DNA from: a virus
Direction: 5' to 3' (one strand)
Length of the DNA: 20,242 nt
Virus record (IMG/VR): IMGVR_UViG_3300042922_000436
Location: 1-20,242 of that record
Below are positions 2,250 through 11,637 of the stretch, in pieces. A model generated the notes under the pieces. The model did not search any database and had not been told where the DNA came from. It saw only the letters and a program-made list of their open reading frames with translations. The position numbers and the translations under genes were made by a program. Positions within the stretch are counted from its first letter, which is position 1, and every line of letters starts with the position of its first letter.

Positions 2250-3194
2250 ATGAGTGAAGAAATCGCCAACCATAGCGAGGAATCACCCGAGATTCAAACC
2301 GACGCCGAAACGGAAGCTGTTTATGCCTCATTTGGACTGACTCCGAAGGCAGAAAAGAAAGAAATTGAATTCCCTGTCGTGAACGATGATCCAAAACCGG
2401 AGGAAACGGAAGATTCTGAACCCACCACAGTCCAGGAGAAGCCAGCCAAAGGTATCAAGGTCAAGTTTCTTGGCGAGGAAAAAGAAGTTCCGGAAGACGA
2501 AGCGCCAACGTGGATTCAGAAAGGAATGAACCACGACCGCTTGCAAGAAAAACTTTCGGAACAGCAAAAAGCTTTGGATGAAGTGGCTGTCCTACAAGGA
2601 TTCAAGGATCACGCAGACCTCATTGCCAATCTCCCGAAACTCCGGGAGCAGCAGCAAAAACAACGGCAGACCGAATTGGACAACATGAAAGCCGATATGT
2701 TGGACCAGTTGGAGGCAAACGGCATTGACCGTGAAGCTGCTGAAAAGTGGATTGAGAATCACCCTACGTTCAAAGCAGGACGTGAAGCGCTGGAAAACCA
2801 GCGTGTAGCCGATCAGAAAGCCGCAGAGAGCGAACGTTGGGGCGAACTGTACAAAAAGTACCCTAACCTATGGGAAGACGTGCAGAAGTCAAACGGAGCG
2901 CCTGTAGAATGGTTCTCCGGCGAGTTTGAACGCATGGTGCAAGAAGGGAATCGGCCATTGCTGGTCTATGAACACCTGTTCCGTGATCAGATTCAGGCCA
3001 AAACCAAAAAGGACACTGAACAAAAGTTAATCAAGCAGCAACAATTGGGCGCACGTGCCCAGGTTGAGGGCAGCGGCGCACCGGAACCGGAGGCAAATGA
3101 CCTTTTGCCGGAGCAACGAGCCTTAGCAGAACTCTACGGAGTATCAGAAAAAGGCGTGAAGCAGCAACAAAAAATGATCCAAAATAGGAGGTAA
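2250..3194 (+). CDS. Scaffolding protein
   Basis: Predicted internal scaffold that guides capsid assembly and leaves or is degraded before DNA packaging. The 314-residue product is highly charged. It has an acidic N-terminal ~70 residues rich in Glu and Asp, a predicted helical/coiled-coil centre (about residues 95-190, rich in Glu, Lys, Gln and Leu), and a basic, Gln-rich C-terminus ending KQQQKMIQNRR, the usual place for capsid-binding residues in scaffolds. I chose ATG 2250 because AAGGAG at 2236-2241 sits 8 bases upstream; the in-frame GTG at 2241 overlaps that site. Location between portal and major capsid protein is the classic scaffold position. Scaffold sequences are poorly conserved, so the call rests on composition and position. 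Confidence 0.8.
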   Translation: MSEEIANHSEESPEIQTDAETEAVYASFGLTPKAEKKEIEFPVVNDDPKPEETEDSEPTTVQEKPAKGIKVKFLGEEKEVPEDEAPTWIQKGMNHDRLQEKLSEQQKALDEVAVLQGFKDHADLIANLPKLREQQQKQRQTELDNMKADMLDQLEANGIDREAAEKWIENHPTFKAGREALENQRVADQKAAESERWGELYKKYPNLWEDVQKSNGAPVEWFSGEFERMVQEGNRPLLVYEHLFRDQIQAKTKKDTEQKLIKQQQLGARAQVEGSGAPEPEANDLLPEQRALAELYGVSEKGVKQQQKMIQNRR

Positions 3195-3199
3195 CACAT

Positions 3200-3628
3200 A
3201 TGGCATTTGTGTGGCATCAGTCCAGCACATCGAGACAACCCAAATACATCACTAATATTCCGTTCACGGCTTCCACCACCTTCACCTATGGTCAAGCCTT
3301 GATCGTCTCCAGCAGCACAGGCAAATGGGTGACCGCTGCGGCAGGCGGTCCGATTGGCGGTATTTACAATGGTCCGACAGTAACAACCCCGGCAAGCCCG
3401 GACGTATATCCGGAAGTGATTGAGGCCCAAGCAGGCGACGAGTACACCGTGGATTATGTCGGAACCCCAGATGCAACATTCCTTCCCGGTCAAGCAGCAG
3501 CAGACATCTCTTCGGGTGGGCTGACCCTTAATGCGGCAGACGTTACAGGCGGTCCGTGCGCAATCCTGTCTCTCAACACAACCAAATCGAAGGCCATTGT
3601 GCGGATCAAGAACCGCCAATTCAGCTAA
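3200..3628 (+). CDS. Putative capsid decoration (cement) protein
   Basis: A 142-residue beta-rich protein, small-residue and Thr/Ser/Gly-rich, without signal peptide or membrane segment. Its central part (about residues 33-60) alternates Val/Thr/Ala with Gly-Gly turns, as in beta-barrel capsid stabilisers that often sit beside the major capsid gene. TAGGAGGT at 3185-3192 is a very strong ribosome binding site, indicating high expression, as expected for a stoichiometric virion part. It lies 5 bases after the scaffold stop and 14 bases before the major capsid gene. The role as capsid cement is inferred from position, size and composition. Confidence 0.6.
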   Translation: MAFVWHQSSTSRQPKYITNIPFTASTTFTYGQALIVSSSTGKWVTAAAGGPIGGIYNGPTVTTPASPDVYPEVIEAQAGDEYTVDYVGTPDATFLPGQAAADISSGGLTLNAADVTGGPCAILSLNTTKSKAIVRIKNRQFS

Positions 3629-3642
3629 GGGGGCGAACATAA

Positions 3643-4635
3643 ATGACCATTAACACAGGCACTTTTCAATCCATGCGCACGATCAATACCATATATGAGC
3701 CGATCTTGCGCGAAGTATACACCCAATCGGTATCTGAGCAAACGGATTACCTGCCCTTGATGTACAACATGGGCAAGACCACCAAGGAACGCGAACACTA
3801 TGAAGGCGTAGGCGCTCAAGGTCTCATGCAGCCGTGGAATTCCACGGGCAAGGCCGTGTTTTATGAAGACCGGGAAAAATTATTTCCTACCAACATTCCG
3901 CAGGTCAAATACTCCTTGGGTACGCAAATTGACCGGGAATGGTTTGACTTCAACAAGCACCAGGACATCAAGGATGAAGTGATCAAACTGTCCGATGCGG
4001 TGTATCAAACCCGGCAATATCAAGGCATTGAAACGTTCAAGAATGCCTTTACCACAAGCGGTACGGACTACCGAGGCATTACCGTTATCAACGGAACTGC
4101 AGGACCGGATGGTAAAGCCTTGTGCGCCACAGACCACCCGCTGAGCCCAACCAATTCCAGCCAAACAAACAGCAACTTGATTTCGCTGTCCCTGGACTAT
4201 GACTCTTGGCATGAAGTTCAGGTTATGGGGCAAAACTGGGTTGATTCCAAGGGCAATCTGATGCCGGTCATGTTCGATTGCTTGATGGTATCCCCTCGCC
4301 TCATGAGCATTGCCTATCAATTGGCCGGCATGAACGCGAAGAAAGCAGACAATGCACAAGCGGTTTATGTTCCGGAGCAGGCCAATTTCTCGCTAAACAT
4401 CTATCGCGGCACATTTGACGTTATCGTCAACCCGTATCTGCCCAATGCGTACAACTGGTTTGCCATGAACAAATCTCGGATGCGCCGGTACAACAAGTGG
4501 AACGAGTTCCGCAAGCCGGACTTCAAGAATGAAACGGATTTCGATACGGAAATCTTCAAATATGCCGTTGTTGGCCTGTGGGGCAAGGGCTTTATCGACT
4601 GGTCCTGGATCATCGGCTCCAACGCAACTTCCTAA
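3643..4635 (+). CDS. Major capsid protein
   Basis: Forms the capsid shell. The 330-residue length fits a HK97-fold capsid protein made with a separate scaffold. Supporting features are an N-terminal helical arm, a segment around residues 62-95 with many aromatic and charged residues (EDREKLFPTNIPQVKYSLGT) resembling the extended loop of Mu gpT-like and related head subunits, a central beta/alpha region with a LMVSPRLMSIAYQLAG helix, and a C-terminal aromatic-rich stretch (VVGLWGKGFIDWSW). The ribosome binding site AAGGGGGCG lies at 3627-3635. Order portal, scaffold, cement, capsid is canonical. The HK97 fold and family resemblance are inference; that this is the major head protein is well supported by context. 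Confidence 0.88.
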   Translation: MTINTGTFQSMRTINTIYEPILREVYTQSVSEQTDYLPLMYNMGKTTKEREHYEGVGAQGLMQPWNSTGKAVFYEDREKLFPTNIPQVKYSLGTQIDREWFDFNKHQDIKDEVIKLSDAVYQTRQYQGIETFKNAFTTSGTDYRGITVINGTAGPDGKALCATDHPLSPTNSSQTNSNLISLSLDYDSWHEVQVMGQNWVDSKGNLMPVMFDCLMVSPRLMSIAYQLAGMNAKKADNAQAVYVPEQANFSLNIYRGTFDVIVNPYLPNAYNWFAMNKSRMRRYNKWNEFRKPDFKNETDFDTEIFKYAVVGLWGKGFIDWSWIIGSNATS

Positions 4636-4646
4636 GGAGGCGTGAC

Positions 4647-5003
4647 ATGAGCAAATACGGCGTAGATTACACCTCAAATAACGGGAAGGGAATTGTCCGG
4701 GCCGACGGGTTTGTGATTGGTAGTGTAGCAAAGGCTCCGGCTGTGGTGATTTCGACCGCGATCACCTTTGACCCTCCTTCTCTCGCCACCGCGACTCCGG
4801 CAGTTTCCAGCGGCATCACGGTTACAGGCGTTGCTTTAGGGGATCACATTGATCTGTTCCCTCCTTATAACACCCAAGGCATCATCTACTCAGCGTCTCC
4901 GTCTGCAGCAAACACCATCATTATCTCCCTGTTCAATGCTTCTGCCGGAACGGTTGATCTTGCCTCCGGCACATGGGGCGTTGTGGTGACCAGGAGGGCA
5001 TAA
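4647..5003 (+). CDS. Beta-rich head fibre/decoration-like protein
   Basis: A 118-residue virion-type protein. After a short N-terminal region (MSKYGVDYTSNN) it has a beta-sandwich-like module of about 75 residues with the pattern FDPPSLATATPAVSSGITVT, then GDHIDLFPPYN, then SAANTIIISLFNASAGTVDL, ending TWGVVVTRRA. This VxVPPxxx...AANTVxVxLxNxTAGTVDxxxGTW arrangement recurs in phage head-fibre and minor structural proteins. ATG 4647 is chosen because AAGGAGG at 4634-4640 precedes it by 6 bases; a longer in-frame start at 4578 would lie inside the capsid gene. Cotranscribed directly after the capsid gene, so capsid surface decoration is the likely role. Confidence 0.65.
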   Translation: MSKYGVDYTSNNGKGIVRADGFVIGSVAKAPAVVISTAITFDPPSLATATPAVSSGITVTGVALGDHIDLFPPYNTQGIIYSASPSAANTIIISLFNASAGTVDLASGTWGVVVTRRA

Positions 5004-5004
5004 C

Positions 5005-5178
5005 ATGGAGAATATCACATGGTCTGTGGGCAGTAACGCTGCCCCGACACCAGACAAGAAACTGGAGTATGTGTCCACCTGGAAGGTGTTTAGCAAACTG
5101 CCGGAGGACGAAAAGGAAAAACGATTCAACGAAATGCGCGCCGATCTGATTATCTTGGGACGCATGGAAAACAAATGA
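5005..5178 (+). CDS. Small 57-residue hypothetical protein
   Basis: Starts two bases after the previous stop (TAACATG), with AGGAGGG in the end of the upstream gene, a typical coupled phage gene. The product begins MENITWSVGSNAAPTPDKKL and has a charged, probably helical C-terminal half with DEKEKRFNEM. No membrane segment or signal peptide. It is followed immediately by a UUCG-loop terminator, so it is the last gene of the capsid unit. Function unknown; it may be a minor structural or assembly factor by position only. Confidence 0.6.
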   Translation: MENITWSVGSNAAPTPDKKLEYVSTWKVFSKLPEDEKEKRFNEMRADLIILGRMENK

Positions 5179-5180
5179 TG

Positions 5181-5206
5181 GAGGAGCTTCGGCTCCTCTT
5201 TTTCTT
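5181..5206 (+). terminator. UUCG-loop intrinsic terminator after the capsid unit
   Basis: Perfect 7-bp stem GAGGAGC (5181-5187) and GCTCCTC (5192-5198) closed by a TTCG tetraloop, followed by TTTTTC. It starts two bases after the stop codon of the 57-residue gene. The next gene's ribosome binding site GGAGGTG begins only seven bases after the T-run. Confidence 0.8.
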
Positions 5207-5220
5207 TATGGAGGTGCGCC

Positions 5221-5394
5221 ATGCCCTTACACTTGGCCGAATTGAAGAAGCACAGCGAGCAAAACGAAGCAATCATCAAGCAAAATAATCGAATCATTGA
5301 ACTGTTGGAGGGATTAACCGATGGGAATCGAGATCAGGCCACGGAGAGTGTACACGAACGCAAACCTCGGAAACGCCGGGGTGTTCCTGAGTGA
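5221..5394 (+). CDS. Small 57-residue protein overlapping the next gene
   Basis: ATG 5221 is preceded by GGAGGTG at 5210-5216. The product begins MPLHLAELKKHSEQNEAIIK, an amphipathic helix likely to be coiled-coil, and ends in a very basic tail (HERKPRKRRGVPE). Its last 74 bases overlap the start of the 114-residue gene in another frame. The N-terminal helix is encoded outside the overlap and looks like a genuine protein; the basic tail is encoded entirely inside it. Function unknown. It could be an assembly helper or a translational-coupling leader for the next gene. Confidence 0.5.
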   Translation: MPLHLAELKKHSEQNEAIIKQNNRIIELLEGLTDGNRDQATESVHERKPRKRRGVPE

Positions 5395-5665
5395 TGCGGT
5401 AAACGGCGAGAAATACGGCAGGTTCACCGGTAAAGTGGCATCGGATCAGGGCGGTACATTGGTGTTTGAACATGCTGACGATGACGGAACCGGGGAGACT
5501 CCTTCTGACGGATGGGACCAGTTGACCAGCATTACAGTAACAGGTGGAACACCGTCTAAGTTCGATGAAATCATGTATTGCAAATGGATCCGTGTGCGGT
5601 ACACCAATGGCGCTACACCTACGACCTCGTTCCGTTTGAGTGGATATCTGGGGCCGAGGGGGTAG
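5321..5665 (+). CDS. Beta-sandwich minor virion protein
   Basis: A 114-residue protein with alternating beta strands: SDQGGTLVFEHADDDG, WDQLTSITVTGG, then WIRVRYTNGATPTTSFRLSG. This order (SDQxGTL, a polar loop, WD, ITVTGG, VRVxYxNG, FRLxG) recurs in small phage head or tail surface proteins with a discoidin-like sandwich, here recognised only by pattern. GGAGG at 5308-5312 gives an 8-base spacing to ATG 5321 and lies inside the preceding overlapping gene, suggesting coupled translation. Position between capsid genes and connectors suggests a capsid or connector surface role. Exact function unknown. Confidence 0.6.
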   Translation: MGIEIRPRRVYTNANLGNAGVFLSDAVNGEKYGRFTGKVASDQGGTLVFEHADDDGTGETPSDGWDQLTSITVTGGTPSKFDEIMYCKWIRVRYTNGATPTTSFRLSGYLGPRG

Positions 5666-5670
5666 AGTAA

Positions 5671-6258
5671 ATGGCTACCCTCTTGGACTTGCGCTATATT
5701 ATCGAAAAGCAAGTAAAAGACAACATCGAGAATCAAGAAATGGTCAATTGGGCCAATGAGGTCAACGCGGATATTGGGACAAACATTAATGTTCCTGCAG
5801 ATCCCATATCCATCACGCTAACGCCAACTGATCTGGAGTACACGATGCCAACTGATTTAAAGGTCATCAATCGGCTGCGCCTACAGAGTTGGATTGACCA
5901 GAACCTGGACATTGAATTTACCACGCCGTACCGCATCTATAACGGGAAAATCATCCTGCCGCGGATACTCTGGATAGCTCCCGATGAATTGGTGGTGGAT
6001 TATTACAAGCACCTGTCCTATTTTGAGACGGAATCCGATGTGATTGATATTCCGGACCGCCTATCCACGGTGTATACCTTCTACGGATTCTGGAAGTATT
6101 ACAACATGCCGGAGGTATTGGTCAAAATGGGTGAAGCTCAGGCGCGTAAGATGGCTGAACTGTACTTGCCCATGTACAACAACATGCGGAATCAGGTAAT
6201 TTCGTATTACTCCCTGAGCGATGAACCGACTACGGTAGAGGGGATGTGGGGACGATGA
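5671..6258 (+). CDS. Head-tail adaptor-like protein
   Basis: A 195-residue protein predicted to begin with helices (LLDLRYIIEKQVKDNIENQE, MVNWANEV), followed by beta strands (ISITLTPTDLEYTMP) and a long C-terminal helix containing LVKMGEAQARKMAELYLPMY. Helical head, beta insertion and late helix with a repeated Ala/Met face match the general design of head-tail adaptors such as T7 tail tubular protein A and P22 gp4, which bind under the portal. GAGGGGGT precedes the start. The stop overlaps the next start (ATGA). Membership in a specific adaptor family is inference; role as a connector is supported by size and position. Confidence 0.65.
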   Translation: MATLLDLRYIIEKQVKDNIENQEMVNWANEVNADIGTNINVPADPISITLTPTDLEYTMPTDLKVINRLRLQSWIDQNLDIEFTTPYRIYNGKIILPRILWIAPDELVVDYYKHLSYFETESDVIDIPDRLSTVYTFYGFWKYYNMPEVLVKMGEAQARKMAELYLPMYNNMRNQVISYYSLSDEPTTVEGMWGR

Positions 6259-6458
6259 CAACCTTTACCTTTACACTCTCCTCCCGCATTGAAGCACCTG
6301 GCACAGACTGGGACGGTCACCTGTTTGTAATCCCTAAACTGACCTTTACCGTCACTGCAGCAAGCTTTGAAGACGCGCTAAACCGTCCGGAAACCATCGA
6401 ATTCTGCAAAACAAACAAATGCCGGATCGGGAAGTGCATAAAGAAGGTGAAGTCATGA
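6255..6458 (+). CDS. Small 67-residue hypothetical protein
   Basis: Begins MTTFTFTLSSRIEAPGTDWD and ends with a Cys/Lys-rich tail NKCRIGKCIKKVKS. ATG 6255 overlaps the previous stop as ATGA, and its own stop overlaps the next start in the same way, so it sits in a tightly coupled string of connector genes. The N-terminal half looks beta-stranded. The GTG at 6246 is a possible but less likely start. Function unknown; the two cysteines near the C-terminus are unusual among these neighbours. Confidence 0.6.
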   Translation: MTTFTFTLSSRIEAPGTDWDGHLFVIPKLTFTVTAASFEDALNRPETIEFCKTNKCRIGKCIKKVKS

Positions 6459-7117
6459 ATCAGTTCTGGACAGCCTCTGAAATGGCGCAAAAAATCATCA
6501 CGCAGAACGCCATGGACATTGAAGACCTGGGCAACCTCACGGCGCAGAAGGCCACCATCTACGGATATATCAATCTCGCATTGTGGGAACTGGCAAGGCT
6601 AGCGTTCCGGCTGATGTACTCAGACGAGATTGAGATTGACGCAGATGGGTTTGTGACCTTTACCCAATCAGGCAGCCCCATCACCAACATGTTTGAACCA
6701 ATGGTGATTTATATGCCGAGCGGTCAACCCATGATGAAAAGGTCTGCCGATGAAGCCCCGCTGGGCTGGTGGAGAGAAGCAGAAACTCAAGATATCCACG
6801 TTCGAGGATTCAACATTACCAATAACACCAAACTCGTACCGGGACTGTATAAGCTCAAATACCTCCGTTATCCCAATCCGGTCACAGTAGACACAGATTA
6901 CCCGGACTTCCCGCCTAGTGGGTACGGAGCAATCATCAACAATGTGTCAGCCCGTATCAAATACAGCAAGAACAGCTTTTCAGATGCACAATATTTTGAG
7001 GCGCAAGCCAAAAGTTCCTATGCCAATCTGGCCCAAGGCTCCATCAGCGCCCGGGGGACTGGAACCACCGGACAACCATTGGGCGATAACGATATCTCGA
7101 AAGCGAGGGGGAACTAA
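6455..7117 (+). CDS. Putative second connector/tail adaptor protein
   Basis: A 220-residue protein with an N-terminal helical region (WTASEMAQKIITQNAMDIED; YGYINLALWELARLAFRL) and a beta-rich middle with several Pro/Gly turns, ending in a low-complexity Gly/Thr/Ser stretch. I choose ATG 6455, with AAGGTGA at 6444-6450 and an ATGA overlap with the preceding stop; the in-frame ATG 6419 would extend 36 bases into the upstream gene and lacks a comparable site. Its stop overlaps the next ATG (TAATG). Position between a head-tail adaptor and the hub suggests a tail adaptor or head-closure component. I do not recognise a defined family. Confidence 0.55.
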   Translation: MNQFWTASEMAQKIITQNAMDIEDLGNLTAQKATIYGYINLALWELARLAFRLMYSDEIEIDADGFVTFTQSGSPITNMFEPMVIYMPSGQPMMKRSADEAPLGWWREAETQDIHVRGFNITNNTKLVPGLYKLKYLRYPNPVTVDTDYPDFPPSGYGAIINNVSARIKYSKNSFSDAQYFEAQAKSSYANLAQGSISARGTGTTGQPLGDNDISKARGN

Positions 7118-8679
7118 TGGCACAGAACCAGTACCAGCCGTTCGAAGTCAAGGTTTCCCCTCTATTGGGGACGGACACCGCATCAGCTCCCACCACCCTC
7201 GCAAAAGGGCGTTGGCGCTACCAAATCAACGCCTATCAAAACAAAATCGGATCGTCCACCAAACGCCCCGGCAGCGTACCCGTCACCAACACCGCGTTGG
7301 GTGCATTGATCAAGCACCTAACCGTGTACCGTAGCGGCGCGACAGAGACGATTCTAGGCACGTCAGGCACAAGCTTGTACAAATATGACTCCAGCGCCTG
7401 GAGCGCGGCTACAGGGTCATTAACGAGCGCAGATATGCAGGATGTAGACTTTACCAATGCAGACTTGGACAGCCGGAAGCTGATTACCGATGGAGGAAGC
7501 CTGAAAGAGTACAATGCCACCACTCATACAGTCAGCGCGGTAACGCCAGCTGCAGATGACCCAGACCCGGCACCCGGCAACGCATTGGCGGACATTAACG
7601 CCAAGGGACCGAAGTACATCTTCACTTATTTCGGTCAGGTATTTATCTCTGACGGTAAGGACGTGTGGTATTACTCCAAGCCCTATGAGTACGACTACTT
7701 CCCGGAAACACAGTTTGAACGATGGGTGAGGAACAACGATTACTTTACCGGAAACGGCGTAGTGTTTGATAATGTCGTGCTTCTGCCCATGCGCAAAGGG
7801 TGGGGCATTCTCACCGGGAAAGACTTTGATGATATCGAAGGAAATTTGTTTTTGAACACCGCAAACGGCTGTATCGCGCCGCGCAGCATCCAAAAAGTCA
7901 CCTATCCGAACGGTTCACAGACCGTTCTTTTTTTATCAGACGACGGGGTATATGAAATCTATGACACCGGATATCTGGACGTAGGGTCGCGGCGGTATTC
8001 AACCCGTAGCAAAACAGCCAATATCATCGACTTTACGGGGATTGGATTCACCGAGGCCGAGAAAGCTGCAGCCTCCAGTTACTACGATGCACAAAACTAC
8101 ATGTACATGCTCTGTATCAGCCGCGATACCCAGCGCTTGATGATGGGTTTTGACACCCGCAACGGCGAATGGTACATCTGGACAAACATCCGGGCCAATG
8201 GATTGGTACGGACAGACGCACTCTATTACGCCGGGGAAACGGGACATCTGCACAAGTTTGATGCGATATTGAATCAGGACTGGAACGAAGTTGCGAAGAC
8301 CACCGGAACAATCGTGGATTTTGTTTGTATGACGGACCTAATCGCATTTGAGAAATCCGGTTACGCTTCTTATCTGGATTATCTTGTAGTGTCCTCCAAG
8401 CAGTACGACATCCCGTCTTCCATTGATGTGGAGATACGAGCCTTAACCTCAACCGCAGAGTATACAAGCGCAGTAAACAATGAAATTATGTTGTGGGGTT
8501 TGGGTAAGTGGGGAATCGCCGCATGGTATAACCCTGATTTTTCTGAATTGGTAAGTAAACCGAAGCGAATTCCAGTCCATAAACGTTCTGTCTATTTTCA
8601 AATTCGATTCAGAAACAACCGCGACGAGCCGTGTGAATTGTACGATTACACGGCAATTGGCCGCGTGTCAGGGAGGTAA
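7117..8679 (+). CDS. Tail hub/nozzle protein, beta-propeller-like
   Basis: A 520-residue protein built of repeated beta blades: short strand pairs with aromatic and Gly-rich turns such as LGTSGTSLYKYDSSAWSAAT, QTVLFLSDDGVYEIYDTGYL and QRLMMGFDTRNGEWYIWTNI. This arrangement resembles podoviral tail hub or nozzle proteins (P22 gp10 and T7 tail tubular protein B in role), which sit under the adaptor ring and carry the tail fibres. No signal peptide, no membrane segment. GAGGGGGA precedes the start, and the ATG overlaps the upstream stop. It lies directly before the tail-fibre gene, as expected. The propeller fold is inferred from sequence texture, not from a profile search. Confidence 0.7.
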   Translation: MAQNQYQPFEVKVSPLLGTDTASAPTTLAKGRWRYQINAYQNKIGSSTKRPGSVPVTNTALGALIKHLTVYRSGATETILGTSGTSLYKYDSSAWSAATGSLTSADMQDVDFTNADLDSRKLITDGGSLKEYNATTHTVSAVTPAADDPDPAPGNALADINAKGPKYIFTYFGQVFISDGKDVWYYSKPYEYDYFPETQFERWVRNNDYFTGNGVVFDNVVLLPMRKGWGILTGKDFDDIEGNLFLNTANGCIAPRSIQKVTYPNGSQTVLFLSDDGVYEIYDTGYLDVGSRRYSTRSKTANIIDFTGIGFTEAEKAAASSYYDAQNYMYMLCISRDTQRLMMGFDTRNGEWYIWTNIRANGLVRTDALYYAGETGHLHKFDAILNQDWNEVAKTTGTIVDFVCMTDLIAFEKSGYASYLDYLVVSSKQYDIPSSIDVEIRALTSTAEYTSAVNNEIMLWGLGKWGIAAWYNPDFSELVSKPKRIPVHKRSVYFQIRFRNNRDEPCELYDYTAIGRVSGR

Positions 8680-8684
8680 TATCC

Positions 8685-10766
8685 ATGGGTGATCCGATTA
8701 ATAGAGCGCCACTAACCGCAGCACAAACCAACCTGGTCAACGGGGAAGTGTCGGACGGTCCGATATTGGAGGCTGCGGTAGAAAATCTGTACGACTACAG
8801 TGATACTAAAAACGCCGAGATTAACGCACACTTAGCAGCTTCTACCCTACCCCATGCGGATGGATCGGTGACCACATCCAAGATTCGGGATGGTGCTGTA
8901 ACGGAACCCAAACTCGCTACAGGTGCAGTCAGCACCAATAAACTGGCGGACAACTCCATCATTACACAAAAGATTCAAAACAACCAAATTACAGAAGATA
9001 AAATGGCAAGCGGCTCTGCAAGTAGCAGAGTCATTGCAAATCAGGCAGTAAAGGCTCAGCACATTGACCCTGCTTTATTTGCTCCGTATCCAGATACTGC
9101 GGTATGGGCGAAGTTTGCCCAGGTTGATAGTCAGTTTACTCAAGTTGAACAACGGTTTTCTGAGATTACACAATCCGGGTTCTACAAATCTGTTTCAAAG
9201 ATGCAAAACAACCAATCCACATATGTAATTGCTGTAGGTGACAGTGTAACGTGGAGTGTGCAGCCTTCTCCATCTTCGGCACAAGTACCAAATCCGTACC
9301 CCGCGTTATTGCAAGAAAAATTAAGGATGGTATACAACAATAACAATATAACAGTTGAAAACCAGGGCAAGAGCGGATGGTCTGCTGCTACATGGTTAGC
9401 AAGTGGAGCTAGTGCTTATTATACAAATGTAATCAATAAACACCCGGACATGATTGTCCTTATGTTGGGGATAAACGATGTGCAAAGCGGTTTTAGTTCC
9501 CAAAAGTACAAGACAGATGCGGAGTCTATGATAAAAATAGCTCTCGACAATGGCATCGAGGTACTTCTTCTGTCCCCGACTATGGTCATGGTTAAAAACG
9601 ACTTTTCTTCTAAGCAAGATGTGAACACGCTCGTATATGAGTATGCGGAAGTGTGTAAGAATCTTGCCAGTCTTTACAATATCGGATTTATTGACATGCA
9701 AAACGAGTTTATGGATTTGGTGTATAACAAAAATGTATATCTGGCATCAGATTTGGTGAATGCAACAGATTTTGTGCATCCCACGGAATTGGGATATGCA
9801 ATGATAGCAAATTTAGTGGTTAAACAATTCCAACGTGCGCCAGTAATGGTGGTTGATTCGGAAAAGTCCTTTGGTGCTGTTGGGTGTCCCTACATTGAAA
9901 GCAACATTAAGATCGCTGATAGCCCGACCGGAAGTTCGTTGAGGTTCAAGCAAGTGTACCTTGTTAAAAGCGACAAATACATTAAATTTAGGTTTATGGT
10001 GTTGAAAAACAACCTGTCGTTGTATTTGTTGCTTGCCAAAAGTTACTACGGTGGGCAAATGGATATTTATCTGGATAACACTCTGGTGGCTACGGTAAAT
10101 GAATATGATTCTGCAATCGGATCGGCAGTTACCAGATACGGTATGAAGACATTTATCTCAGACGTTTCCAATGGATATCATGAGTTATTGATTAGCGGAG
10201 CAAACATGACAAAAGTAAATGTTGATGCTTTGTACATGTTTATCCTGGAAGCCATCAGTTTTGAAGATAAAACAAAGAATAAGCGATTGTCGGATAACGC
10301 TACTGTTCAGCTTGCTAATAACGCTTTTGTGAGCTTGAGACAGGGCAATTTCGATGATTTTGCTTGTTTGCGATCAGGAAGAACATTGGTATGCAGGTTT
10401 AAAGGATATGGATTTGTAAATTCCAGCGGTATTTTGATAAACAACACAATAACAGCCACCGGAACAGATTCTGTGGCTAACTTTATTTCATTCGCATCAA
10501 GCAAAATTCAGTTGACCACATATAATATAAATTCCGGTACTCCTGTTGTTACGGCTGGAACATCAACTATAGATTTAACAAAAGAACTTGACATTAGAAT
10601 TGAGATAGATAGCAGTTACGGGTTCAAGGTTTACTGCAACAACGTGCTTGAAGTAACCGCATCAAATTCACAAAATTCAGTTACAGGAGGGTATGTTAAA
10701 TTACTTAATCAAAGTGGAAGCACCATAACATTGTCGCTATCGGATTTCAGCATATATTCGTATTGA
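8685..10766 (+). CDS. Tail fibre/receptor-binding protein with SGNH hydrolase domain
   Basis: A 693-residue adhesin-type tail protein. Residues 1-55 are likely the virion-attachment part. About 60-126 hold tandem ~10-residue repeats (GSVTTSKIRD, GAVTEPKLAT, GAVSTNKLAD) typical of trimeric fibre shafts. About 180-375 form an SGNH/GDSL hydrolase: GDS with Ser187, GIND with Asn264, and DFVH with Asp362 and His365, a complete catalytic set. SGNH enzymes commonly remove acetyl or acyl groups from polysaccharides. About 390-530 and 540-693 look like carbohydrate-binding beta sandwiches (GQMDIYLDNTLVATV; LDIRIEIDSSYGFKVYCNN). Likely role: bind and deacylate a surface polysaccharide of the host. GGGAGGT precedes ATG 8685. 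Base composition drops sharply after the repeats, suggesting domain exchange. Substrate unknown. Confidence 0.8.
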   Translation: MGDPINRAPLTAAQTNLVNGEVSDGPILEAAVENLYDYSDTKNAEINAHLAASTLPHADGSVTTSKIRDGAVTEPKLATGAVSTNKLADNSIITQKIQNNQITEDKMASGSASSRVIANQAVKAQHIDPALFAPYPDTAVWAKFAQVDSQFTQVEQRFSEITQSGFYKSVSKMQNNQSTYVIAVGDSVTWSVQPSPSSAQVPNPYPALLQEKLRMVYNNNNITVENQGKSGWSAATWLASGASAYYTNVINKHPDMIVLMLGINDVQSGFSSQKYKTDAESMIKIALDNGIEVLLLSPTMVMVKNDFSSKQDVNTLVYEYAEVCKNLASLYNIGFIDMQNEFMDLVYNKNVYLASDLVNATDFVHPTELGYAMIANLVVKQFQRAPVMVVDSEKSFGAVGCPYIESNIKIADSPTGSSLRFKQVYLVKSDKYIKFRFMVLKNNLSLYLLLAKSYYGGQMDIYLDNTLVATVNEYDSAIGSAVTRYGMKTFISDVSNGYHELLISGANMTKVNVDALYMFILEAISFEDKTKNKRLSDNATVQLANNAFVSLRQGNFDDFACLRSGRTLVCRFKGYGFVNSSGILINNTITATGTDSVANFISFASSKIQLTTYNINSGTPVVTAGTSTIDLTKELDIRIEIDSSYGFKVYCNNVLEVTASNSQNSVTGGYVKLLNQSGSTITLSLSDFSIYSY
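8862..9062 (+). repeat. Imperfect decapeptide repeats in the fibre shaft
   Basis: About six to seven imperfect ten-residue units in the tail fibre, with the pattern G-[AS]-[VI]-T-x-x-K-[IL]-x-[DNT]. The repeats are clear in protein but degenerate in DNA. Such repeats form shaft segments of phage fibres and often mark recombination joints before exchangeable tips. Confidence 0.6.
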
Positions 10767-10799
10767 TTAACAAATGTCACAATGATTTAATTTATACCC

Positions 10800-10828
10800 T
10801 TCAATTTAATATACAGAAAATGTATAAT
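10800..10828 (+). promoter_or_regulatory. Candidate promoter for the membrane SGNH gene
   Basis: A perfect TATAAT at 10823-10828 lies in the 95-base leader between the tail-fibre stop and the TTG start at 10862. The -35 region at the best spacing (TTCAAT, 10800-10805) is weak. The local sequence is very AT-rich, so chance occurrence is possible. It would permit expression of the hydrolase independent of the late operon. Confidence 0.4.
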
Positions 10829-10861
10829 TGTTCAAAACACGAACAGAATCGAGGGGTTATT

Positions 10862-11578
10862 TTGAAAATAGTTTGGAAGGCAATCATTATTGCATCAATA
10901 ATGGTTAACATCATAGGATTAGCAGGAGGTGGATATATTGCAATAAAAGCAGGTTGGATACTAAAGGGAAATGATACCCAGACATACCCAATAAATTATT
11001 ATATACAGAAGGGTGTATACGACAAATTAAGCGTATCTGAAAACGACATTGTTTTTTTTGGAGATAGTCTTACTGATTTTGGTCAATGGAATGAAGTGTT
11101 GTCATCCCCCAAAAAAGTGTTAAACAGGGGGATAATGGGGGATGATACAGAACGGTTACTTGGAAGAGTGAACGAGGTTGGAAATCCGAGTAAAGTTTTT
11201 ATTATGGCCGGAATAAATGATCTGATAAACGGTGAACCATTGGACCAAATATTAAGTAATTATAAAAATATCGTAACCACCATTTCCAAAAATTCTCCAA
11301 AAACTAAAATTTATATTGAAAGTGTTTTGCCTGTTGACAACATCAAATTTAAAGATTCATACAAAACAAAAAAAAGTATAAATCCCAATGACGTTATTTT
11401 AATGAATGATCAACTGAAATTACTAGTTCAGGAGTTTAATGGAGTCTATGTAGATTTATATGATTCCTTTTCGTATGGCGACGTACTGAGGAGTAATTAC
11501 ACATCAGATGGAATTCATTTGACTAGTGAAGGATATAACCTTTGGGCAAGTTTATTAATAAAACATGTGAACGACTGA
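10862..11578 (+). CDS. Membrane-anchored SGNH/GDSL hydrolase
   Basis: A 238-residue enzyme. I choose TTG 10862 because GAGGGG at 10851-10856 lies 5 bases upstream; a longer frame from 10763 lacks a site and overlaps the fibre stop. Two early lysines are followed by a hydrophobic segment (residues 7-28, AIIIASIMVNIIGLAGGGYI), a signal anchor that should place the enzyme outside the membrane. SGNH motifs follow: GDSLTDFG (Ser69), NRGIMGDD, GIND (Asn119) and DGIHL (Asp216, His219), so the catalytic set is complete. Such enzymes typically deacylate glycans or lipids. It is not a typical structural protein: it lies in AT-rich DNA between tail fibre and ejection genes, with its own promoter-like box and terminator. 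It may alter the cell surface of the infected or lysogenic host (superinfection exclusion). Substrate unknown; a virion role is not excluded. Confidence 0.75.
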   Translation: MKIVWKAIIIASIMVNIIGLAGGGYIAIKAGWILKGNDTQTYPINYYIQKGVYDKLSVSENDIVFFGDSLTDFGQWNEVLSSPKKVLNRGIMGDDTERLLGRVNEVGNPSKVFIMAGINDLINGEPLDQILSNYKNIVTTISKNSPKTKIYIESVLPVDNIKFKDSYKTKKSINPNDVILMNDQLKLLVQEFNGVYVDLYDSFSYGDVLRSNYTSDGIHLTSEGYNLWASLLIKHVND

Positions 11579-11607
11579 AACTAAGATATTTAATTGATAT
11601 TTAAGAA

Positions 11608-11637
11608 GCCTCGGGGCATCCCGGGGCTATTTATTTT
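11608..11637 (+). terminator. Intrinsic terminator after the membrane SGNH gene
   Basis: GCCTCGGG (11608-11615) pairs with CCCGGGGC (11620-11627), with one G-U pair and a GCAT loop, followed by TATTTATTTT. It closes the AT-rich cassette and is itself GC-rich. The ribosome binding site of the next gene follows at once. Confidence 0.75.

What the first reader, a model, noticed from the sequence alone, without database searches (positions are those of the whole stretch)
8685..11578. Two SGNH hydrolases side by side: one on the tail fibre, one anchored to the cell membrane
The tail fibre carries a complete SGNH triad (Ser187, Asp362, His365), and the next gene encodes a second, different SGNH hydrolase (Ser69, Asp216, His219) behind an N-terminal signal anchor. 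The first fits an adsorption enzyme that deacylates host polysaccharide. The second would sit on the outside of the infected or lysogenic cell, where it could strip the same substituent and so block re-adsorption by sister phages. A matched pair of receptor-processing and receptor-masking enzymes would be a neat, perhaps undescribed, adsorption/superinfection-exclusion module. Motifs are seen; shared substrate and exclusion are inference.
Basis: partly seen in the sequence, partly recalled or inferred. Interest (0 to 1): 0.78.

Follow-up and report, generated by a model that had tools for sequence, protein, structure and literature searches.

The report
Phage deacylase fibre plus membrane esterase
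This virus carries an ester-cutting enzyme on its tail fibre and, in the next gene, a second one anchored in the membrane of its bacterial host; many otherwise unrelated temperate viruses have the same pairing, which suggests that the second enzyme alters the cell surface the fibre grips so that the infected cell resists further viruses.

Summary
The tail fibre (8685-10766) has a full SGNH triad (Ser187/Asp362/His365). The next gene, which starts at TTG 10862, encodes a different SGNH hydrolase (Ser69/Asp216/His219) behind one N-terminal membrane helix.

Related sequences strengthen the case. Of 16 phage or prophage loci with this membrane enzyme, 13 have it directly after a tail-fibre gene. 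Ten of those fibres carry SGNH, two carry a CE4 polysaccharide deacetylase, and one phage has a separate SGNH gene nearby. In 54 Gram-positive phages chosen without regard to either gene, 2 fibres carry SGNH and none has the membrane enzyme (Fisher p about 1e-8). The membrane genes look like repeated captures from bacterial chromosomes, most carriers are temperate, and promoter-like sequence precedes the gene. In a close relative, fibre tip and neighbour are replaced together by a beta-helix fibre and an EpsG-type polymerase.

Best reading: a receptor-modifying (lysogenic-conversion) esterase matched to a deacylating receptor-binding protein. Shared substrate and superinfection exclusion remain inference. 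The link runs one way: SGNH fibres often occur without the membrane enzyme. I found no description of the pairing in the held library. It is a new variant of prophage receptor modification.

The parts
8685..10766 (+). Tail fibre / receptor-binding protein, 693 aa: N-terminal attachment part (about residues 1-160), SGNH domain (183-372), beta-rich C-terminal part
   Evidence: Pfam PF13472 E 5e-21 and PHROG tail-fibre hits; N-terminal part conserved at 58-63% in L006 and L007 whose C-terminal parts differ
9231..9800 (+). SGNH catalytic domain of the fibre (residues 183-372; Ser187, Gly231, Asn264, Asp362, His365)
   Evidence: Pfam boundaries; residues checked; PDB sequence relatives are GDSL esterases and acetyl xylan esterase Axe2
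10767..10850 (+). Intergenic stretch with promoter-like sequence (TATAAT near 10824; best-scoring pair near 10763)
   Evidence: sequence; promoter score against own shuffles p=0.05 here, enriched over 13 loci relative to other phage intergenic gaps. Consensus match only
10851..10856 (+). GAGGGG ribosome-binding site, 5 nt before the TTG start
   Evidence: Sequence
10862..11578 (+). Membrane-anchored SGNH hydrolase (TM-SGNH), 238 aa; TM helix about 3-29; Ser69, Asn88/Gly90, Asn119, Asp216, His219
   Evidence: closest solved structure is the Bacteroides/Phocaeicola vulgatus sialate O-acetylesterase (6njc, 7pzg; 34-35% identity)
11607..11628 (+). Intrinsic terminator closing the cassette; homology to relative L006 resumes here
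   Evidence: blastn alignment restarts at window 11606; identical hairpin seen in L006 after the EpsG gene

Best explanation
The fibre SGNH domain is a receptor-processing esterase: the phage binds an acylated (probably O-acetylated) cell-surface polysaccharide and removes acyl groups during adsorption. The next gene makes an esterase held on the outer face of the cytoplasmic membrane by an N-terminal signal anchor. It would strip the same class of ester from that polysaccharide, most likely from the prophage through its own promoter and perhaps also late in infection. The lysogen or infected cell then no longer displays the form the fibre recognises, so superinfection, and loss of progeny to sister cells and debris, is reduced. 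It works like classical lysogenic conversion (Oac, GtrABC, D3 Wzy), but by removing a group instead of adding one, and it is encoded with the receptor-binding protein as an exchangeable cassette. SHOWN: both SGNH enzymes, membrane anchor (by sequence and model), recurrent pairing with acyl-hydrolysing fibres, temperate carriers, joint replacement of fibre tip and neighbour in a close relative. INFERRED: O-acyl substrate, shared substrate, expression in the lysogen, exclusion.
For: (1) Pairing: of 16 phage loci with a strong TM-SGNH, 13 lie directly downstream of a fibre; 10 of those fibres carry SGNH (window, L003, L010, L044, L050, L062, L064, L066, L067, L072), 2 carry CE4 polysaccharide deacetylase (L042, L043), and L059 has a separate SGNH gene beside a beta-helix fibre. 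Background: 2 of 54. Fisher p = 1.1e-6 (SGNH alone), 1.4e-8 (SGNH or CE4). (2) Not simple co-inheritance: fibre SGNH domains share on average 22% identity, TM-SGNHs 38%, with no correlation (rho 0.02, p 0.45); phage TM-SGNHs interleave with chromosomal ones, 10 label changes, at least 2 forced. (3) Cassette: in relative L006 homology breaks at about 9128 and resumes at the terminator 11606; between them lie a beta-helix fibre tip and an EpsG (PF14897, E 1e-43) gene. GC falls from 0.50 to 0.39 (fibre tip) and 0.33 (TM-SGNH). (4) Substrate class: nearest structures are carbohydrate O-acetylesterases (EstA activity in PMC5512079); SGNH fibres of other phages are active esterases/deacetylases (PMC13123978). 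(5) Temperate: integrase in L006's contig and in 10 of 14 TM-SGNH viral contigs, with L010 inside a bacterial genome. (6) Promoter-like sequence enriched upstream, Mann-Whitney p 1.4e-4 against 60 control gaps. (7) In P22-like vB_EcoP-683R2 a related SGNH sits between tailspike and integrase, where P22 keeps gtrABC (the P22 position is from general knowledge).
Against: No activity, localisation or adsorption data. The two SGNH domains belong to different subfamilies, so a shared substrate is not shown. The one-way association leaves the enzyme dispensable for SGNH-fibre phages. Three of 16 TM-SGNH loci (L046, L063, L068) show no acyl-hydrolysing fibre next door. A chromosomal homologue (L110) lies beside an MBOAT acyltransferase, and a Vibrio prophage homologue (L198) beside an Acyl_transf_3, so some family members may take part in acylation. 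The background set is rich in Bacillus cereus-group phages, and the 16 loci were found by similarity to the window. Integrase and promoter evidence is indirect, and the window itself shows no integrase.
Confidence: 0.6

Rival explanations
1. Late receptor-destroying or lysis-helping enzyme: made with the late genes, it removes acyl groups from wall polysaccharide or peptidoglycan of the dying cell, so that endolysin works better or progeny do not stick to debris. It is not a lysogen function.
For: The gene lies in the late region on the same strand, directly after the fibre; peptidoglycan O-acetylesterases are SGNH enzymes (general knowledge); in several phages lysis genes follow soon after (L010, L042-L044, L059, L067).
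Against: In the window the amidase is about 7 kb away and the invariant neighbour across phages is the fibre, not the lysis genes. Endolysin types vary (amidases and GH25), so no link to muramidases. Promoter-like upstream sequence and temperate carriers favour separate expression. The P22-like homologue lies next to the integrase.
Confidence: 0.17
2. The membrane SGNH acts as an O-acyltransferase (PatB/DltD-like), teaming with a host MBOAT or acyltransferase-3 to add a group that the fibre does not accept.
For: Chromosomal homologue L110 sits beside an MBOAT gene and Vibrio prophage homologue L198 beside an Acyl_transf_3 gene. Weak DltD similarity in L010 and L064. SGNH folds serve in both esterases and transferases.
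Against: No acyltransferase partner is encoded in the window or was seen beside the 13 fibre-linked TM-SGNHs. Nearest structures are O-acetylesterases at 34-35% identity with the full SGNH set. Pairing with deacylating fibres is better explained by matching chemistry.
Confidence: 0.15
3. A host-benefit moron (surface remodelling, nutrition, stress) with no role in phage adsorption, carried in a tolerant gap after the fibre gene.
For: Homologues are common on Bacillota chromosomes (18 of 199 genomes at E<=1e-30); the gap after the fibre is a variable site that also holds EpsG, Wzy and Acyl_transf_3 genes.
Against: It predicts no match between fibre chemistry and neighbour, but SGNH/CE4 fibres are strongly over-represented (p about 1e-8). 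The other genes in the gap are also surface-polysaccharide enzymes.
Confidence: 0.08

Closest known systems
Lysogenic conversion by O-antigen acetylation or glucosylation (Sf6 Oac, P22 GtrABC, Salmonella A3/A4)
   Same: A temperate-phage membrane enzyme alters the surface glycan that the phage's own tail protein uses; in P22-like phages the genes lie beside the tailspike and integrase, and an SGNH of this family occupies that place in vB_EcoP-683R2.
   Different: Those enzymes add groups and act on Gram-negative O-antigen. Here a hydrolase presumably removes a group, the hosts are mostly Bacillota, and the gene lies directly behind a fibre with the same enzyme class.
Pseudomonas phage D3 seroconversion (Oac, Wzy-beta, Iap)
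   Same: Phage-encoded surface-glycan enzymes prevent superinfection (D3 O-acetylation is cited in PMC13123978; its polymerase is from general knowledge). Relative L006 carries an EpsG-type polymerase in the slot used here by TM-SGNH.
   Different: D3 has no membrane esterase and no fibre/neighbour chemical match was described there (general knowledge).
SGNH (GDSL) deacetylating tail fibres: E. coli phage G7C gp63.1, Klebsiella prophage RBPs
   Same: Same fold on a tail fibre; active esterases, and for G7C a deacetylase of the O-chain that does not cut it (PMC13123978 and citations in it).
   Different: No membrane-anchored partner is described there; that paper mentions SGNH proteins adjacent to RBPs only where the RBP lacks a recognised domain.
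Sialate O-acetylesterase EstA (Bacteroides / Phocaeicola vulgatus 6njc, 7pzg)
   Same: Closest solved relative of the membrane enzyme: about 34% identity, TM-score 0.87 by target, complete SGNH blocks.
   Different: EstA acts on 9-O-acetylated sialoglycans (PMC5512079); the phage enzyme has an N-terminal membrane anchor and an unknown, probably bacterial, glycan substrate.
Prophage TarP of Staphylococcus aureus
   Same: A prophage enzyme that changes a Gram-positive surface polymer, wall teichoic acid (PMC9650247).
   Different: A glycosyltransferase, not an esterase; no pairing with an enzyme-bearing fibre known to me.

Membership tests
SGNH/GDSL hydrolase superfamily (both proteins) | Four blocks: catalytic Ser in GDS, oxyanion Gly and Asn, and DxxH | tested here: met
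   All residues present in both proteins; Pfam PF13472 above cut-off for both; invariant in 19 TM-SGNHs
Enzymatic tail fibre / RBP of the SGNH type (G7C gp63.1-like) | Tail-fibre N-terminal attachment part followed by an SGNH domain | tested here: met
   PHROG tail-fibre hits at residues 35-127, SGNH at 183-372; N-terminal part shared with L006/L007 fibres
Enzymatic tail fibre / RBP of the SGNH type (G7C gp63.1-like) | Deacylates the host polysaccharide receptor | not testable with these tools
   No assay; host not identified
Sialate O-acetylesterase EstA-like esterases | Overall fold and sequence relation to EstA | tested here: met
   phmmer E 4e-31, Foldseek E 6e-19, 34-35% identity
Sialate O-acetylesterase EstA-like esterases | Removal of 9-O-acetyl from sialic acid | not testable with these tools
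   Substrate unknown; not claimed
Lysogenic conversion / receptor-modification genes | Encoded by a temperate phage | tested here: inconclusive
   The window is a fragment with no integrase seen; close relative L006 has a serine integrase, and 10 of 14 TM-SGNH viral contigs carry an integrase
Lysogenic conversion / receptor-modification genes | Expressed from the prophage | tested here: inconclusive
   Promoter-like sequences enriched upstream of the gene over controls; consensus only
Lysogenic conversion / receptor-modification genes | Changes surface glycan and lowers adsorption of the cognate phage | not testable with these tools
   Needs experiment
PatB/DltD-type acyltransferase partners | Encoded with an MBOAT or acyltransferase-3 partner | tested here: not met
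   No such gene recognised in the window; seen only beside some homologues (L110, L198)
Known anti-phage defence proteins (PADLOC) | Match to a PADLOC-DB model | tested here: not met
   No match for fibre, TM-SGNH or the L006 EpsG protein

The most novel reading that the evidence does not exclude
Temperate phages, mainly of Bacillota, have repeatedly assembled a matched receptor cassette: an enzyme-bearing receptor-binding protein followed by a membrane enzyme whose chemistry predicts, or is predicted by, the fibre's. Deacylating fibres (SGNH or CE4) go with a membrane SGNH esterase, while beta-helix fibres go with an EpsG/Wzy-type polymerase or an acyltransferase-3. The cassette swaps as a unit and couples host-range switching to exclusion of one's own siblings.
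Probability: 0.4. Interest if true: 0.8.

Novelty: new variant of a known kind. Interest (0 to 1): 0.63.

Why it matters
Phage receptors on Gram-positive surface glycans are poorly known. If the neighbour of the fibre gene modifies the receptor, that neighbour names the chemical group the fibre reads, so receptors could be predicted from sequence. It would also add removal of acyl groups to the known ways (addition, re-linking) in which prophages disguise their hosts, and explain a recurring orphan esterase of phage genomes.

Tried and rejected
A start at TTG 10763 was rejected (no RBS there, homologues start later). Recent duplication of one SGNH into the other was rejected (about 20% identity, E 0.003). 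Single inheritance of one bipartite cassette was judged unlikely (no correlation of fibre and TM-SGNH distances, phage genes interleaved with chromosomal ones). PADLOC: no hit. A scan with the window fibre's SGNH domain found no close viral relative. The GH25 alignment was too divergent to scan with, so a holin_4 alignment served as the neutral sampler. Fibre AlphaFold model too weak to search beyond the SGNH core (mean pLDDT 47), so not used for a fold search. The BppU_N survey gave too few loci for a table. The EpsG scan and INPHARED searches returned only itself or one weak hit, so the polymerase half of the generalisation rests on very few cases. Host of the window not identified: portal and tail proteins have only remote or no relatives in INPHARED. 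INPHARED 'Bacteriophage sp.' hits MT836395 and MT838366 look like bacterial contigs and were left out.
Full report
WHAT IS THERE. The window is a 20,242-base fragment of a virus record with a P22-type portal, an SU10-type adaptor and an amidase endolysin. The fibre gene 8685-10766 has a tail-fibre-like N-terminal part and an SGNH domain at residues 183-372; Ser187, Gly231, Asn264, Asp362 and His365 are all present. The next gene starts at TTG 10862, five bases after GAGGGG, and encodes 238 residues: one N-terminal hydrophobic helix, a short flexible linker and an SGNH domain with Ser69, Asn88, Gly90, Asn119, Asp216 and His219. AlphaFold2 gives mean pLDDT 92.7 with the helix at 3-29. The closest solved structures are the Bacteroides/Phocaeicola vulgatus sialate O-acetylesterases 6njc and 7pzg (34-35% identity, TM-score about 0.87 by target); the fibre domain's include acetyl xylan esterase Axe2. 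Both therefore resemble carbohydrate O-acetylesterases. The two domains are only about 20% alike.

THE SLOT IS AN EXCHANGEABLE CASSETTE. Two close relatives of the phage exist in IMG/VR (tail protein 95% and 93% identical). Both keep the fibre's N-terminal part and differ beyond it. In L006 DNA homology stops near window 9128 and resumes at 11606, exactly at a terminator (11607-11628) present in both. Between these points L006 has a beta-helix fibre tip and an EpsG-family polysaccharide polymerase (PF14897, E 1e-43) in place of fibre SGNH plus membrane SGNH. GC content falls from 0.50 in the flanks to 0.39 and 0.33 in the window's cassette and to 0.42 and 0.37 in L006's, which fits acquisition from outside. 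L007 is cut off by the contig end before the slot.

THE PAIR RECURS. Searches with the membrane enzyme gave 16 phage or prophage loci with a strong family member (profile E below 1e-65). In 13 it lies directly downstream of a tail-fibre gene (in L010 one small ORF intervenes). Ten of these fibres carry Pfam Lipase_GDSL_2 (window, L003, L010, L044, L050, L062, L064, L066, L067, L072; L064 is at the cut-off and L072 just below it). Two carry a CE4 polysaccharide deacetylase instead (L042, L043). The thirteenth, L059, has a beta-helix fibre and a separate SGNH gene a little further upstream. The carriers include a podovirus-like phage, siphovirus-like phages and baseplate types with unrelated fibre N-termini, such as BppU_N in L010.

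BACKGROUND. As a neutral sample I took 79 Gram-positive phages found by a holin, which reduce to 54 after removing near-copies. By the same profiles and by Pfam only 2 of 54 have an SGNH fibre, none a CE4 match by my profile and none the membrane SGNH. Fisher's test gives p = 1.1e-6 for SGNH fibres (10/16 against 2/54) and 1.4e-8 when CE4 is included (12/16 against 2/54). Caveats: the background is rich in Bacillus cereus-group phages, the 16 loci were found by similarity to one another, and CE4 was added to the criterion after it had been seen.

NOT JUST SHARED DESCENT. A tree of 49 membrane SGNH domains scatters the 16 phage sequences among chromosomal Bacillota homologues (10 label changes, at least 2 forced by well-supported branches). 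The window's enzyme is sister to L003's (97/95). Fibre SGNH domains are much more diverse than the membrane ones (mean identity 22% against 38%), and the two sets of distances do not correlate (rho 0.02, permutation p 0.45). The combination was therefore probably put together more than once, which points to a functional reason. The dependence is one-way: SGNH fibres occur without the membrane enzyme in L151, L154 and three INPHARED phages, whose whole records were searched (the one weak hit, in MW824374, is its own tail protein).

LIFESTYLE AND EXPRESSION. L006's contig has a serine integrase, and 10 of 14 viral contigs with the membrane enzyme have a tyrosine or serine integrase. L010 lies in a bacterial genome. 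Promoter-like sequence upstream of the membrane gene exceeds shuffles in several loci (combined p 1e-4) and exceeds 60 other intergenic gaps of phage loci (Mann-Whitney p 1.4e-4). In the P22-like phage vB_EcoP-683R2 a related SGNH sits between tailspike and integrase, the place of gtrABC in P22 (general knowledge). In a Vibrio prophage a related SGNH sits between repressor, acyltransferase and integrase. All this fits prophage expression without proving it.

MECHANISM. I think it most likely that the membrane enzyme removes, from the cell's own surface polysaccharide, the class of acyl group that the fibre recognises and cleaves, so that lysogens and infected cells are poorly adsorbed by sister phages. 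Shown: two SGNH enzymes, the anchor (by sequence and model), the pairing, the swap. Inferred: O-acyl substrate, shared substrate, expression in lysogens, exclusion. SGNH tail fibres of other phages are established active esterases, and acetylation by prophages is an established exclusion route (PMC13123978 and works it cites). That paper raises deacetylation and superinfection exclusion in general terms but describes no membrane-anchored partner. My searches of the held library found no report of the pair; most subscription literature is not covered.

RIVALS. A late receptor-destroying or lysis-helping role is possible, but the constant neighbour is the fibre, not the lysis genes, and endolysin types vary. 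An acyltransferase role is possible, since a chromosomal homologue lies beside an MBOAT gene and the Vibrio one beside an acyltransferase-3 gene, but no partner was seen with the fibre-linked enzymes. A neutral host-benefit gene would not predict the match of chemistry.

BROADER PATTERN, WEAKLY SUPPORTED. The gap behind fibre or tail genes also holds an EpsG polymerase beside a beta-helix fibre (L006), an acyltransferase-3 beside a fibre whose sequence looks pectate-lyase-like to me but had no Pfam hit (L118), and a Wzy polymerase (L161). The idea that the neighbour reports the fibre's chemistry is worth a census but rests here on few cases outside the SGNH class.

VERDICT. Observation confirmed, interpretation partly supported and strengthened at the level of association; novelty is a new variant of prophage receptor modification.

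Noticed in passing
L006:11644-12690: Close relative of the window has an EpsG-family polysaccharide polymerase (PF14897) behind a beta-helix fibre, in the slot where the window has the membrane SGNH.
   Followed up: partly
L161:7439-8923 and L118:7162-8241: Two phages from the neutral holin sample carry an O-antigen-type Wzy polymerase and an acyltransferase-3 between the tail/fibre genes and the holin.
   Followed up: partly
L042:2965-4680 and L043:3450-4952: Tail fibres with a CE4 polysaccharide deacetylase domain, each directly followed by a membrane SGNH.
   Followed up: yes
L196 (ON470594, vB_EcoP-683R2), locus 1863-2663: SGNH esterase of the same family between the P22-type tailspike and the integrase of a Lederbergvirus, where P22 carries its seroconversion genes.
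   Followed up: partly
L198 (PQ189390, Vibrio phage ZF14_PE001), locus 4156-7644: Order repressor - acyltransferase-3 - membrane SGNH - integrase; looks like a two-gene surface-acylation conversion unit (the acyltransferase carries an unrelated isovaleryl-CoA transferase label in the record).
   Followed up: partly
L110:1-2232: A chromosomal Bacillota homologue of the membrane SGNH is followed by an MBOAT acyltransferase gene, so some members may work in acylation.
   Followed up: partly
L204 (MG592581, Vibrio phage 1.211.A), locus 3145-6708: Two adjacent tail-region genes both annotated as SGNH hydrolases, the second without an N-terminal membrane helix.
   Followed up: no
L072:6829-8223: A KAP-family P-loop NTPase gene follows the membrane SGNH; a possible additional accessory gene.
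   Followed up: no
L005/L051/L076 (152-kb contig IMGVR_UViG_3300022689_000474): An SGNH domain of the same family lies inside a giant open frame of more than 4000 residues.
   Followed up: no
L200, L201 (MT836395, MT838366): INPHARED 'UNVERIFIED Bacteriophage sp.' records that carry bacterial housekeeping-type genes; they look like bacterial contigs, not phages.
   Followed up: partly
window:1-8679: The phage's structural genes have only remote relatives (portal about 23% identity) or none in 50,697 phage records, so the lineage is essentially undescribed apart from two IMG/VR contigs.
   Followed up: partly
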